Assembly (NCBI GenBank): GCA_030426945.1
Contig: JAUHXL010000009.1
Span: 1 to 40,859, forward strand
Source: a bacterium
Lineage (GTDB): Bacteria; Myxococcota_A; Bradymonadia; UBA7976; UBA1532
Reading direction: 5' to 3'
Length of the DNA: 40,859 nucleotides
Shown in pieces: positions 15,138-19,667 of the stretch. Position 1 is the stretch's first letter. Each line of letters begins with the position of its first letter. The notes beneath the pieces were generated by a model. That model did no database searches. It was not told where the DNA came from and worked only from the letters and a program-made list of their open reading frames with translations. The translations under genes were made by a program, and so were the position numbers.

Positions 15138-15443
15138 CTACCAGCGACCACCGCCCGAACGGCCGCCGCCACCGCCGCCGCCGCCGCCGCTGCGACCGCG
15201 GTCCTGCGCCTCGTTCACCTTGACCGAGCGGCCATCGATGCTGGTGCCGTCCATCTCGGCGATGGCGTTCTGCGCCGCGTCCGAGTCGGCGAACGTGACG
15301 AACCCGAAGCCGCGCGAGCGGCCGGTCTCGCGATCGGTGATGACCTTCGCCTCGGTGATCTCACCGAAGGACTCGAAGGCCTGGTTCAGACTGGCATCGG
15401 TGGTGTCCCAGCTCAGGCCACCCACAAACAACTTCTTCGACAT
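15138..15443 (-). CDS. RRM-domain Gly-rich RNA-binding protein
   Basis: A 101-residue protein made of one RNA recognition motif (residues 3-80) and a short Gly/Arg/Ser tail with nine Gly in a row. RNP2 is LFVGGL (5-10) and RNP1 is RGFGFVTF (44-51), both intact with the aromatic RNA-stacking residues. Bacterial proteins of this size (the cyanobacterial Rbp type, also common in myxobacteria) bind single-stranded RNA and are often cold-induced. The ATG at 15443 is preceded by a GAGAG-type ribosome site; the much longer track ORF is a shadow extension. A strong terminator follows, and two hairpins lie in the 5' leader. Confidence 0.92.
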
Positions 15444-15489
15444 CTTGCACTCTCGGCCTCTCGGGCTTTCCCCGGATGGCCTCAGGATA

Positions 15490-15537
15490 CGGGCGAAAGG
15501 CGCCCGACGGACCATCGCGCAGCCAGCGGTGGCTGCG
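15490..15537. promoter_or_regulatory. Two hairpins in the RRM gene leader
   Basis: CGGGCG-AAAGG-CGCCCG (15490-15506) and CGCAGCCA-GCGG-TGGCTGCG (15518-15537) are perfect stems of 6 and 8 bp, lying 47-94 nt upstream of the RRM start codon. A structured leader would fit cold-dependent or autogenous control, but this is inferred from position only. Confidence 0.35.
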
Positions 15538-15688
15538 TCGACGGCGCACTTAGAGCACAGCCACCGACGAGAAAGATAGGCAAATCGACCGAGGGGTCGG
15601 CGCCAGGGGAAACGCGACGGTTGGCGATGGGGCGGGCGAGGCGCCGGCGCGGGCCGGTGAGATCGGCGGCTCGCGCCGGCGGCGCGGC

Positions 15689-17194
15689 TCAGCGGGCGGG
15701 CTCGGCGACCACCTGCAGGTGGACGCCGGCGGGCAGCGGGAGCGCCTGCAGGTCGGCGCGGGCCGCCTCGAGCGCGACGCCGGGCAGGAGCCGGCGTTCG
15801 GCGCGCTGGCCGTCGCGTCGCCGCAGCGGGGTGGGGCCCGCGACCGCGCGCAGCGTCGCCACGGCCGACAGGGGGATGCGCGCGCCCTGGGGCGTGGTCA
15901 ACGTCAGACCCGCAAGGTCGGCCGGCTCCTCGGGCGGGGGGCCCGCGCGGACGATGATCGGGGCGCGCCCGTCGCCGAGGCGGGCCACCCCCACGGGGCT
16001 GCCGGCGGTGGCCGCGCGCAGGGCGCGGGCGATGTCCGCTGAGGTCACGCCGAGGGTCGCGGCCGACGCCGAAGCGCGGGCCTCCAGCGTGGGCGGCGCC
16101 GGGGGGGGACCCAGGGCGGCGGGCCAGCGCGCCTCGATCATGCGCAGGGCCGCGGCGCGCGCGGCGTCGTCGGCGCCGATGACCCAGACGTGCGTGGTGG
16201 GGGCGTCGACGGCCTCGGGGGGGCCGACGCGCACGCCGGGCATGGGGGGCGGCGGGCCGACCTCGCCGGTGTACCAACGCCCGTCACCGTCGGCGGGCAG
16301 CCACACCAGGCCGGTGACGCCGGATCCGAGCGCGGGGCGCGCGGCCGCGGCGGGGGGCAGCCGCAGCGTGCGGCGCGCGCTGGCGGCGACCGGGCGCAGG
16401 TCCTCGGGCCAGGCGGGCGCGCCGTCCACGCGGACGCGGAAGCAGGCGCGCGGGCGGCCGTCCAGCAGGCACGTGCAGTCCGCGCGGCGCTCGAGCTGAA
16501 CCTGGGCCACGTCGCTCAGGCGCACGAGGGGGTTGGCGCGCAGCGCGGCGTCCCCCAACGCTTCGGGGGGCAGGGGGGCGCCGCCGGGCGGGGTGGCGAG
16601 GGCCGCCGCGACCTCCTCGAACGTCACGCCGTAGGCGGCCTGCCGCGCGGCGTCGAGGGTGATCGCGACCGTGCGCTCGTCGAGACCGCAGGTCTCGATG
16701 TCCAGCACCCCGGGCAGCCGCGCGAGGGCGCGGCGCGCGGCGTCCGCCCGCTCGGGATCGGCGGCGAGCAGGTGGATGGGCCCGGTGGGCGCGCGTCGGA
16801 CGCGCGGGGCCTCGGCCTCCGGCGGCAGGGCGACGCCGCGCAGCGCGTCGGCGGCCCGCTCGGCGGCGGCGCGCGGGGCCACCCCGGGCGCGAAGCGAAG
16901 GTGCAGCCGGGCGACCCCCTCTTCGGCGGTCGTCTCGAGGTGGGCCAGGTCCGCCAGGCCCAGCACCGCGGCCTCGAGGGGGCGGACCACGCCGGCCTCG
17001 ATCGCGGCGGGCGTGGCGCCGGCCCAGGGGATCTCGACGTGAATGCTCGGCGGCGGGGGGCCCGCGAAGACGAGCAGCGCCGCCAGCGCGATCACGGGGC
17101 GGCCCGCCCCGCGCGGAGGCGCGGCGAGGGCTGCGGCGAGGCGCTCACCGCACCACCAGCACTGGGCACGGGGCGTGGTGGACCACGCGGTCAC
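15689..17194 (-). CDS. RND efflux porter-domain protein lacking the transmembrane bundles
   Basis: A 501-residue protein with AcrB-family periplasmic porter signatures but no membrane bundle. After a short hydrophobic segment ([12 protein letters not shown], about 34-45) comes a PN1-like start, [20 protein letters not shown], then a PN2-like part with [22 protein letters not shown] and [13 protein letters not shown] second-half PC-like part has [20 protein letters not shown] and [25 protein letters not shown]. It ends [12 protein letters not shown], just where TM helices would follow in an RND pump. A full RND subunit has about 1000-1050 residues and 12 TM helices; only one short hydrophobic stretch is present here. 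The role is unknown, perhaps ligand capture. The ATG at 17194 overlaps the USP gene by 50 nt; a GTG at 17095, just before the hydrophobic stretch, is an alternative start. Confidence 0.65.
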
Positions 17195-17567
17195 TCACCG
17201 AGCCGACCAGAAAGCGTTTGACCGAGGACAGGCCGCGGGAGCCGATCACGATGAGATCGTAGGCGCCCTGCTCGGCGACGCGACACACCGTGTCCGCCGG
17301 ATCGCCCCGTTCGACGCGGCGGTCCCACGGCACGTCGGTCGTGCCGAGCGCCGGCACGACGTCCTCGAAGCGCTGGTCGGCCAGCCAGCGCACGCGATCC
17401 GTGCCTTCCGGCGCGGCCTCGTAGTAGCCGGGCAGGGGACCGAAGTCCTCGACGACCTCGAGCACGGTCACCGCGGCGCCGAGGCGGGCGGCGAGATCGA
17501 GGGCGGCGTCCAGCGCGCGGTGGGCGTCCGGGCTCCCGTCGATGGGCACGAGCAGCTTGGCGAACAT
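17145..17567 (-). CDS. Universal stress protein (UspA family)
   Basis: A 140-residue single-domain USP. It begins KLLVPIDGSPDAHRALDAAL and ends with the ATP-binding signature [21 protein letters not shown] (GxxGx9GS), so it belongs to the nucleotide-binding class, and it closes with [10 protein letters not shown]. These cytoplasmic proteins accumulate in stress or starvation; the exact partner is unknown. Its ATG lies 3 nt after the stop of the amidase-propeller gene, so it is translated from the same message. The next gene in the operon overlaps its end. Confidence 0.93.
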   Translation of the reverse strand: MFAKLLVPIDGSPDAHRALDAALDLAARLGAAVTVLEVVEDFGPLPGYYEAAPEGTDRVRWLADQRFEDVVPALGTTDVPWDRRVERGDPADTVCRVAEQGAYDLIVIGSRGLSSVKRFLVGSVSDRVVHHAPCPVLVVR

Positions 17568-17570
17568 CGG

Positions 17571-19667
17571 CTACTCCGGCAGGTCGATCTCGACGGCGAT
17601 CAGGGCGTCCCCGGCCAGGAAGACCAGGGTGCGTCCGGCGAGCGAGGGCGCGAGCTCGATGCGGTCGGCCGAGCGGGTGAGCGCGCGCAAGGGCAGGTCG
17701 GCGTCGTGCAGATCGCAGAGCAGCAGATCCCCGCCGGTGAGCTGCCCACCCTCGTCGGTCGTCCGCTCGAAGACCAGCCAGCGGCCCGTGGGATCGAAGG
17801 CGGGGTGCCCGCCGGGGCCGAGCGGCGTCGTCTTGCCGTCGGCGACGCGGTACACGGTGAGGCCGGTGCGCAGCCCCCAGAGGACGACGTGGTCGCCGGT
17901 GGGCCCCGCGACGGCGGTGACGTAGCGATCACCGGGCGGGCTGATGCGGTAGGCCACCCCGCGCTGGCGCAGCTCGACCTGATCGTCCGGGGTGAGGCGC
18001 AGGTGGAAGCCGGGGGCGGTCAGCTTGGGGGCGACCTCGGCGCCGCCGAGGGTGCGGGCGCGCAGGGGGACGGCCAGGGCGGACTGACCGGGCGTGCGGA
18101 AGGCGAGGGTGTCGGTGTCCTGCCAGAGGGGGCGGTGGCCGACGCGGGGGCCCTCGACCAGGGCGCGCGGGGGTCCGCCGGCGAGCGGGACGACCATCAG
18201 GGTGGCCAGGTCGCGCGCGGGCACGGCGACGTGGGCGGCGTCCGGGGACAGCAGGGGGGCGGCGAAGTCGCCGCGGGCGAGGATGCGCTCGGGGCCGGCG
18301 GCGACGAGCGGCAGGGCCTCGGTGTCGGGGGCGACCTCGACGCCGCCGGCCGGCACGTCGGGCACGTGGGCGCGGGCGGTCAGGGGCAGGGCCGCCACGA
18401 GGAGCAGGGCCGCGGCGCCCCGGCGACGGCGCAGCAACAGCAGCGGCAGCAAGAGGAGGACGAGCGCGGCCGGTGAGGCGCGGCCCGCGGGCGTGAGGGT
18501 GCAGCCGCCGTCCCCCGACGCCTTCGACACCGCGACGTTCTCTTCCTGCTCGGCGCCCAGGGGCGACGGCGCCACACCGCGATCGAAGAGGCCGCCGACG
18601 CCGCCGTCGCGCGGCGGCGCGGGCGGCCGGGCGTCCGGGCGGGGGAGGGGGCCTACGTCGGCGCCGGGCGGCGCGGCGTCCACCCGCGGCGGCGCGGCGT
18701 CGACCACCGGGCCCACGCCGGCGTCCTCGGGCGGCGGCGGGGGCGGCGCCATGTCGGCGGGCGGCGGCGGATCGGGCGCGTCGCGTTGCAGGCCCACCGA
18801 GCACCACGCCTGCTGGTTGGCCGCGACGGCGCAGGTGCGCTCGGCCGGGACGTAGCCGTCGAGGGTGGCGCGCACGGTGTACTCGCCGGGCGGCAGGCTG
18901 AACTCCCAGCCGCCGGTGCCATCGGCCGAGCGGGTGGTGTCGCCGGTCTGCTGCACGCGCACCTGGGCGCCGCCGAGGCGCACCGAAGGATCCTCGAGGC
19001 CGACGCCCTGATCGGCGAAGACGACGCCGATGAGGGTGCCGCGGTCGTCGCCCGGCTGCGGATCCGGGGGATCGACGCCCAGGTGGCTGGTGACGGCCTC
19101 GGCCATCGCCTGGGCCATGCGTTGGCGGGCGCCGCCGTCGCCGAGCAGGGCGGCGTCGGGATCGCAGCGGTTGATGAAGCCCATCTCGGCGAGGGCCGCG
19201 GGCATGGAGGTGGCGGTGAGGACGGTGAAGTTCTCGCTCTTGACGCCGCGGTCCCGCAGGCCCCAGGCGCGCACCATGGCGGCCTGCACGGTGTTGGCGA
19301 AGCGGCTGGACGCGGCCGAGGCGCCGCGGGCGATCCACGTCTCGGTGCCCGTCGCGGGGTCGCCGCCGTTGGCATTGGCGTGGATGCTGAAGAAGAGCGC
19401 GGCGTTGCGGTCGTTGGCGAAGGCGGCGCGGGCGCGCAGCTCGACGAAGGTGTCGTCGTCGCGGGTGAGGGCGGCGCGCAGGCCCGCGGCGCGCAGCAGG
19501 TCGCCCAGGCGGCGCGAGGTGTCGAGCACCGACGCCTTCTCCTGCAGGCCGCAGCCGACGGCGCCGGGATCACGCCCGCCGTGGCCGGCGTCGACGACGA
19601 CCAGCGGTTGGGCGTGGGCGACGCCGAGCAGGGCCAGGGCGAGGGGCAGCAGCGAGAGCGCGCGCAT
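17571..19667 (-). CDS. N-acetylmuramoyl-L-alanine amidase fused to a propeller, with an internal MYXO-CTERM-like segment
   Basis: A 698-residue protein with a signal peptide (to about 19). Amidase_3 covers about 21-195, with Zn ligands in DAGHGG (His29), LQEKAS (Glu43) and SIHAN (His96) and catalytic Glu161 in LAEMGFINR; it should cleave peptide stems from murein. A carboxypeptidase-regulatory/PEGA-like domain (210-293) contains DGTGGWEFSLPPGEYTVRA. A Pro/Asp-rich linker follows to about 385, then GGC, a hydrophobic run and RRRR (389-416), like a MYXO-CTERM tail. The chain then continues with a second secretory-like segment (LRRRRGAAALLLVAALPLTARA) and a TolB/WD40-like propeller (440-698). 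It may be a fusion of two former genes, or the second part may start at a TTG (18437). GGAGG precedes the ATG. It is first in an operon with the USP and RND-like genes. Confidence 0.82.
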   Translation of the reverse strand: MRALSLLPLALALLGVAHAQPLVVVDAGHGGRDPGAVGCGLQEKASVLDTSRRLGDLLRAAGLRAALTRDDDTFVELRARAAFANDRNAALFFSIHANANGGDPATGTETWIARGASAASSRFANTVQAAMVRAWGLRDRGVKSENFTVLTATSMPAALAEMGFINRCDPDAALLGDGGARQRMAQAMAEAVTSHLGVDPPDPQPGDDRGTLIGVVFADQGVGLEDPSVRLGGAQVRVQQTGDTTRSADGTGGWEFSLPPGEYTVRATLDGYVPAERTCAVAANQQAWCSVGLQRDAPDPPPPADMAPPPPPPEDAGVGPVVDAAPPRVDAAPPGADVGPLPRPDARPPAPPRDGGVGGLFDRGVAPSPLGAEQEENVAVSKASGDGGCTLTPAGRASPAALVLLLLPLLLLRRRRGAAALLLVAALPLTARAHVPDVPAGGVEVAPDTEALPLVAAGPERILARGDFAAPLLSPDAAHVAVPARDLATLMVVPLAGGPPRALVEGPRVGHRPLWQDTDTLAFRTPGQSALAVPLRARTLGGAEVAPKLTAPGFHLRLTPDDQVELRQRGVAYRISPPGDRYVTAVAGPTGDHVVLWGLRTGLTVYRVADGKTTPLGPGGHPAFDPTGRWLVFERTTDEGGQLTGGDLLLCDLHDADLPLRALTRSADRIELAPSLAGRTLVFLAGDALIAVEIDLPE

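What the first reader, a model, noticed from the sequence alone, without database searches (positions are those of the whole stretch)
17571..19667. MYXO-CTERM-like tail followed directly by a second signal-peptide-like segment within one ORF
Seen: residues 389-416 give GGC, a hydrophobic run and RRRR, the usual end of a sorted myxobacterial protein. The chain then continues LRRRRGAAALLLVAALPLTARA and a propeller. A TTG at 18437 would start a second protein with a textbook signal peptide. Either two genes fused by loss of a stop, or one ORF makes two secreted products.
Basis: partly seen in the sequence, partly recalled or inferred. Interest (0 to 1): 0.6.

Follow-up and report, generated by a model that had tools for sequence, protein, structure and literature searches.

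The report
One gene for two secreted proteins
A single bacterial gene strings together a wall-cutting enzyme and a propeller-shaped protein, separated by a removable "sort me" tail joined directly to a fresh "export me" signal, and the same trick recurs in dozens of genes across the Myxococcota, which suggests that these bacteria make two surface proteins from one chain.

Summary
ORF 19667..17571(-), 698 aa, reads: signal peptide, Amidase_3, CarboxypepD_reg, Pro-rich linker, MYXO-CTERM (387-416), signal-peptide-like segment (417-433, ARA|H), TolB-like propeller. There is no stop, and no usable ribosome site before the second part. It is not a sequencing error or a recent stop loss. The same fused ORF is in 18 Myxococcota genomes, one on a single 10.3-Mb contig. 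Only one family has two genes. The six intact split pairs form one clade (100/100) inside the fused ones, so fission looks derived, and the freed downstream gene carries a Shine-Dalgarno and its own signal peptide. The second signal ends in an SPase I motif here but in a lipobox in 13 relatives, so export is what is conserved. The layout is general: 53 scored ORFs in 37 genomes, in several unrelated protein families, carry an internal MYXO-CTERM running straight into a second signal. This genome has five, plus a myxosortase (MrtP). Best reading: a polyprotein whose hairpin is cut out by myxosortase and signal peptidase, the Arg run serving both signals. Internal MYXO-CTERM is already reported as rare (MXAN_5598, PMC11980579). 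The adjoining second signal, phylum-wide recurrence and derived fission appear new. No cleavage has been measured.

The parts
17571..19667 (-). single ORF, 698 aa: amidase - MYXO-CTERM - second signal - propeller
   Evidence: orthologous fused ORFs
19608..19667 (-). N-terminal signal peptide (residues 1-20, MRALSLLPLALALLGVAHAQ), preceded by GGAGG
   Evidence: by inspection
19089..19601 (-). Amidase_3 zinc amidase domain (residues 23-193); H29, E43, H96, E161 invariant in the fused relatives
   Evidence: PF01520 156.6 bits; CwlV 1jwq E=1.8e-32; alignment
18804..18977 (-). CarboxypepD_reg domain (residues 231-288)
   Evidence: PF13620 34.8 bits
18420..18509 (-). internal MYXO-CTERM: GGC signature, transmembrane run, RRRR (residues 387-416)
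   Evidence: TIGR03901
18369..18431 (-). second signal-peptide-like segment; RRRR (413-416) as n-region, h-region, ARA|H (to residue 433)
   Evidence: replaced by a lipobox signal in many orthologues
17574..18368 (-). TolB/WD40-like beta-propeller (residues 434-698)
   Evidence: family profile A2 hits TolB 7mx5 E=2.7e-7; PD40 in 7 of 8 members; weak model, all listed matches propellers

Best explanation
The gene encodes a two-protein polyprotein for export. (1) Sec exports the amidase half using the first signal peptide. (2) The MYXO-CTERM helix stops in the inner membrane with RRRR in the cytoplasm. (3) The same RRRR acts as the n-region of a second signal, which re-enters the translocon and exports the propeller. 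(4) Myxosortase (MrtP here) cuts beside the CTERM cysteine and sends the amidase to the cell surface. (5) Signal peptidase I cuts after ARA and frees the propeller; in relatives with a lipobox, Lgt/LspA would instead make it a lipoprotein. (6) The small hairpin is discarded. One ribosome pass gives the two partners 1:1 at the same place. Shown here: the open frame, both signals, conservation of the architecture, exchange of the second signal type, derived fission with a new ribosome site, a myxosortase gene in the genome, and recurrence in other protein families. Inferred: the topology, both cuts, surface placement and the 1:1 ratio.
For: Fused ORF in 18 genomes, including single-contig genome G200. 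The split forms form one clade, 100/100, within the fused ones. All six intact split downstream genes have SD scores of 4-6 and their own signal peptide, while TTG 18437 has 0. The second signal is a lipobox in 13 fused orthologues and AxA in 5. Across 53 junctions in 37 genomes, 25 carry a lipobox against a shuffle mean of 6.3 and maximum of 14. Five such junctions occur in this genome. MrtP scores 374 bits against a cut-off of 250. The junction model finds nothing in 30 genomes chosen from amidase hits, nearly all outside the phylum. MYXO-CTERM cleavage by MrtX, the cysteine requirement and the proposal that internal tags are processed are in PMC11980579.
Against: No proteomic or biochemical evidence of either cut. 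For the non-lipobox junctions the AxA[DEQ] motif (16 of 28) lies inside the range of composition shuffles (mean 9.1, max 19), so cleavage by SPase I at the window's own site rests on inspection and on the lipobox relatives. TIGR03901 scores 18.6 bits in the whole-protein scan, just under its cut-off. MrtP's activity is assumed from family membership.
Confidence: 0.76

Rival explanations
1. One uncleaved protein: the two hydrophobic segments form a membrane hairpin that tethers amidase and propeller to the same site.
For: Conserved continuous frame; two adjacent hydrophobic peaks with RRRR between; AxA motifs no more frequent than composition allows.
Against: Lipobox cysteines at the end of the second segment in 25 of 53 junctions, far above shuffles; the halves work as separate genes in the split clade, each keeping its own signal; the CTERM cysteine is kept in the junctions read; a myxosortase is present.
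Confidence: 0.14
2. Two products by internal translation start: the second protein starts inside the tail (TTG 18437 or another codon), and read-through of the frame is incidental.
For: A TTG is in frame at 18437; some relatives have an ATG in the tail.
Against: No SD at TTG 18437; 36 of 47 junctions have no in-frame start with even a 4-base SD match nearby, while all split downstream genes do. If starts were independent, a stop between the halves would be free, yet the frame stays open in 18 diverged orthologues.
Confidence: 0.05
3. Sequencing or assembly error, or a recent loss of a stop codon in this MAG.
For: The window comes from a 75.6%-complete MAG of 772 contigs.
Against: Same fusion in 17 other genomes, including single-contig assembly G200 and near-complete G356; four more junctions of the same design in the same genome.
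Confidence: 0.01
4. The internal CTERM is a decayed relic: only the second signal is cut, leaving the amidase anchored in the inner membrane by its tail.
For: TIGR03901 just under cut-off in the whole-protein scan.
Against: The Cys + helix + R-run is kept in the fused orthologues and in the other junction ORFs, and the split genes end in an ordinary terminal tail.
Confidence: 0.04

Closest known systems
MXAN_5598 of Myxococcus xanthus (Guo, Haft & Wall 2025, PMC11980579)
   Same: Internal MYXO-CTERM in one ORF; authors propose that the N-terminal part is processed and surface-anchored.
   Different: Adhesin + OM barrel/OmpA rather than amidase + propeller. Described as rare and as a likely gene fusion; the passages read name no second signal peptide and no conservation across the phylum.
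MYXO-CTERM / myxosortase sorting (TIGR03901; NF040593, NF040674)
   Same: Same tripartite tag; myxosortase MrtP present in the genome.
   Different: The tag is in the middle of the chain, not at its end.
TraA-TraB of M. xanthus
   Same: MYXO-CTERM protein followed directly by an exported partner (as described in PMC11980579).
   Different: Two overlapping ORFs, not one.
Bradyrhizobium FbcH cytochrome b/c1 polyprotein (from own knowledge; not retrieved)
   Same: Bacterial polyprotein separated at an internal signal peptide.
   Different: No sorting tag; the first half is an integral membrane protein; only one processing enzyme needed.

Membership tests
MYXO-CTERM protein | Cys-containing signature, transmembrane helix, Arg-rich end | tested here: met
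   GGC 387-389, hydrophobic run, RRRR 413-416
MYXO-CTERM protein | TIGR03901 score at or over the cut-off of 20 bits | tested here: inconclusive
   18.6 bits in the whole protein; 24.5 bits in the genome search
MYXO-CTERM protein | tag at the C-terminus | tested here: not met
   282 aa follow
MYXO-CTERM protein | cognate myxosortase in the genome | tested here: met
   MrtP, NF040674 374.1 bits, cut-off 250 (L215)
MYXO-CTERM protein | cleavage and surface anchoring | not testable with these tools
   needs protein work
Sec/SPase I signal peptide (second segment) | positive n-region, h-region, small residues at -3/-1 | tested here: met
   RRRR-GAAALLLVAALPLT-ARA|H, by inspection; cleavage not tested
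Sec/SPase I signal peptide (second segment) | motif beyond chance in the set of relatives | tested here: inconclusive
   AxA[DEQ] 16/28 vs shuffle mean 9.1, max 19; lipobox 25/53 vs mean 6.3, max 14
Amidase_3 (N-acetylmuramoyl-L-alanine amidase) | domain score and zinc/catalytic residues | tested here: met
   PF01520 156.6 bits; H29, E43, H96, E161 invariant; CwlV match
TolB/WD40-like propeller | PD40 repeats or propeller fold | tested here: inconclusive
   window alone PD40 E=0.028, below gathering; family level met; fold model weak, pLDDT 54

The most novel reading that the evidence does not exclude
Myxococcota use a general bacterial polyprotein design. A C-terminal sorting tag and a signal peptide are joined back to back around one shared arginine run, so that two different membrane proteases excise a hairpin and one ORF gives two (sometimes three) separately addressed envelope proteins. 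The second product is switched between soluble and lipoprotein forms during evolution by changing only the end of the hairpin.
Probability: 0.6. Interest if true: 0.78.

Novelty: new variant of a known kind. Interest (0 to 1): 0.64.

Why it matters
Bacterial polyproteins are unusual. If this holds, annotation pipelines miss the second product of these ORFs, and dozens of 'domain fusions' in Myxococcota are really pairs of separately sorted proteins. The internal tag also gives a clean assay for myxosortase, with two products to follow. The conserved pairs (PG amidase + propeller, surface adhesin + OmpA barrel) point to partners that need 1:1 synthesis, and the split clade is a natural experiment with both halves as separate genes.

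Tried and rejected
(a) Sequencing error or stop loss: rejected, since the fusion is phylum-wide. (b) Internal start: no SD. (c) A first reading of minus-strand loci gave false 'internal' tails, because genome loci are not turned to the match strand; corrected. (d) Automatic SPase I site calling picked early AxA triplets; those positions are not used. (e) AxA enrichment alone does not beat composition shuffles. (f) L206, L199 and L167 in the own-genome survey are not CTERM-second-signal cases (no CTERM Cys, multi-helix, or a low-complexity run-on). (g) The genome-contig scan with the fused alignment returned mostly unrelated amidases. (h) The propeller fold model is weak (pLDDT 54). (i) The second half of L249 looked propeller-like by eye but had no sequence support. 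(j) One search used the wrong family accession and is used only for genome facts. (k) Searches found no paper on fbcH or on such polyproteins in the held library; Haft's 2024 in silico paper on myxosortases is not held.

Full report
WHAT IS THERE. The ORF at 19667..17571(-) is a single open frame of 698 aa. It has a signal peptide (1-20), Amidase_3 (23-193, 156.6 bits), CarboxypepD_reg (231-288), a Pro/Ala/Asp-rich linker, a MYXO-CTERM (387-416), a second hydrophobic segment directly after RRRR (417-433, ending ARA|H), and about 265 residues of beta-propeller type. The amidase resembles CwlV (1jwq, E=1.8e-32), and H29, E43, H96 and E161 are invariant in the fused relatives. The propeller family matches TolB (E=2.7e-7), and PD40 is found in 7 of 8 members. 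The window's own copy is too weak for Pfam, and its fold model is poor (pLDDT 54), though all listed structural matches are propellers. Third-position GC is 0.95 and 0.97 in the two halves.

THE ORTHOLOGUES. In the class, amidase and propeller occur in the same genomes. The one exception is G033, where only the amidase was found, on a short contig. The fused form is in G000 (window), G002 and G019. A phylum search and reading of the regions add G356, G230, G193, G212, G329, G200, G228, G208, G178, G372, G135, G260, G242, G346 and G377, making 18 genomes. G200 is one contig of 10.33 Mb. In G149 the amidase part is frame-shifted, but CTERM, second signal and propeller share one frame. In G007 the two parts lie on different contig ends. 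Separate genes occur only in family f4. Six intact pairs there have a CTERM gene ending in RRR(R) plus a few residues, then a stop, then a propeller gene with its own signal peptide, from 4 bases of overlap to 25 bases apart. In a maximum-likelihood tree these six form one clade (100/100) nested within fused forms, so the parsimonious history is fission of a fused ancestor (midpoint root, so direction is inferred).

WHY TWO PRODUCTS. First, all six freed genes have SD scores of 4-6, while the window's TTG 18437 has none and 36 of 47 junctions have no in-frame start with even a 4-base SD match. The second half is therefore most likely made by reading on from the first. Second, the second segment is a type I-like signal in five fused orthologues but a lipobox signal in 13, so the export function is kept while the protease changes. 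Third, the split clade shows that the halves can work apart, each keeping its signal. Fourth, the genome encodes myxosortase MrtP (374 bits, cut-off 250).

IT IS A GENERAL DESIGN. In this genome 75 MYXO-CTERM hits were followed downstream. Most end 0-13 aa before a stop. Five run on into a second signal: the window; C228 (LVAC|ADS); C442 (LGGC|SPK, then FG-GAP/ASPIC); C280 (PARA|YD, TSP3 half then a barrel-like protein); C301 (AEA|DD). Junction models built from these (A4, A5) find more across the class and phylum, read. Altogether 53 ORFs in 37 genomes were scored, plus two f60 ORFs with a longer linker. Several unrelated families are involved: amidase-propeller; a large lipoprotein followed by a lipoprotein (L248, L253, L260, L263, L314, L315); TSP3/adhesin followed by OM barrel/OmpA (for example L306, OmpA 76 bits); M23 peptidase-FG-GAP followed by a lipoprotein (L249); and others. 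In almost all, 0-7 residues lie between the last Arg and the second hydrophobic run. A lipobox is present in 25 of 53 against 6.3 expected from shuffles (max 14 of 1000). The SPase I motif alone is within shuffle range, and this is the weakest point. The model finds nothing in 30 genomes chosen from amidase hits, nearly all outside the phylum. One search scored only 24 candidates per genome, so counts are lower bounds.

MECHANISM. By positive-inside topology the CTERM helix ends with RRRR in the cytoplasm and the second segment starts there, so one Arg run serves as the end of the tag and the start of the next signal. Myxosortase and signal peptidase I (or Lgt/LspA) would then remove the hairpin. 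MYXO-CTERM cleavage by MrtX, its need for cysteine and its activity in E. coli are published (PMC11980579). The rest is inference.

RELATION TO THE KNOWN. That paper says internal MYXO-CTERM motifs occur in rare cases, names MXAN_5598, suggests a gene fusion, and proposes that the N-terminal part is processed. The idea that an internal tag works is therefore not new. MXAN_5598 is listed as an 'OmpA domain protein' in vesicle proteomics (PMC4158809), which does not resolve the halves. What I did not find in print, within the held library, is the immediately adjoining second signal, the exchange of SPase I and lipobox types, the phylum-wide recurrence and the derived fission.

LIMITS.

Noticed in passing
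L257 (G016:C148:14000-31000) and L258 (G016:C59:22000-27108): Long ORFs with an internal MYXO-CTERM plus lipobox signal and a second MYXO-CTERM at the very C-terminus: two tagged products in tandem in one chain.
   Followed up: partly
window 17145-17567 (-): A UspA-like universal stress protein gene starts 3 bases after the stop of the fused ORF, on the same strand, so probably one transcript.
   Followed up: no
window 15138-16277 (-): The C-terminal part of this frame reads as a small glycine-rich RRM RNA-binding protein ([24 protein letters not shown]...), overlapping other long GC-rich frames.
   Followed up: no
L249 1333-4437 (+) (G043:C263): Peptidase_M23 + FG-GAP - MYXO-CTERM - lipobox signal - unknown domain: another peptidoglycan hydrolase in the same two-product layout.
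   Followed up: partly
L300 (G012:C17) and L301 (G009:C47): Orthologous ORFs with internal MYXO-CTERM then lipobox and a large C-terminal lipoprotein half (GIGRRGS(L/M)MHDGCG), conserved between two genomes of one genus.
   Followed up: no
L360 (G149:C210:1000-6500): Amidase half and CTERM-propeller half lie in different frames, overlapping in the linker: a frameshift in the genome or an assembly error.
   Followed up: no
L364 (G217:C519), L365 (G305:C22): Amidase genes with a terminal MYXO-CTERM-like tail and no propeller after them; L365 has two amidase genes close together.
   Followed up: no
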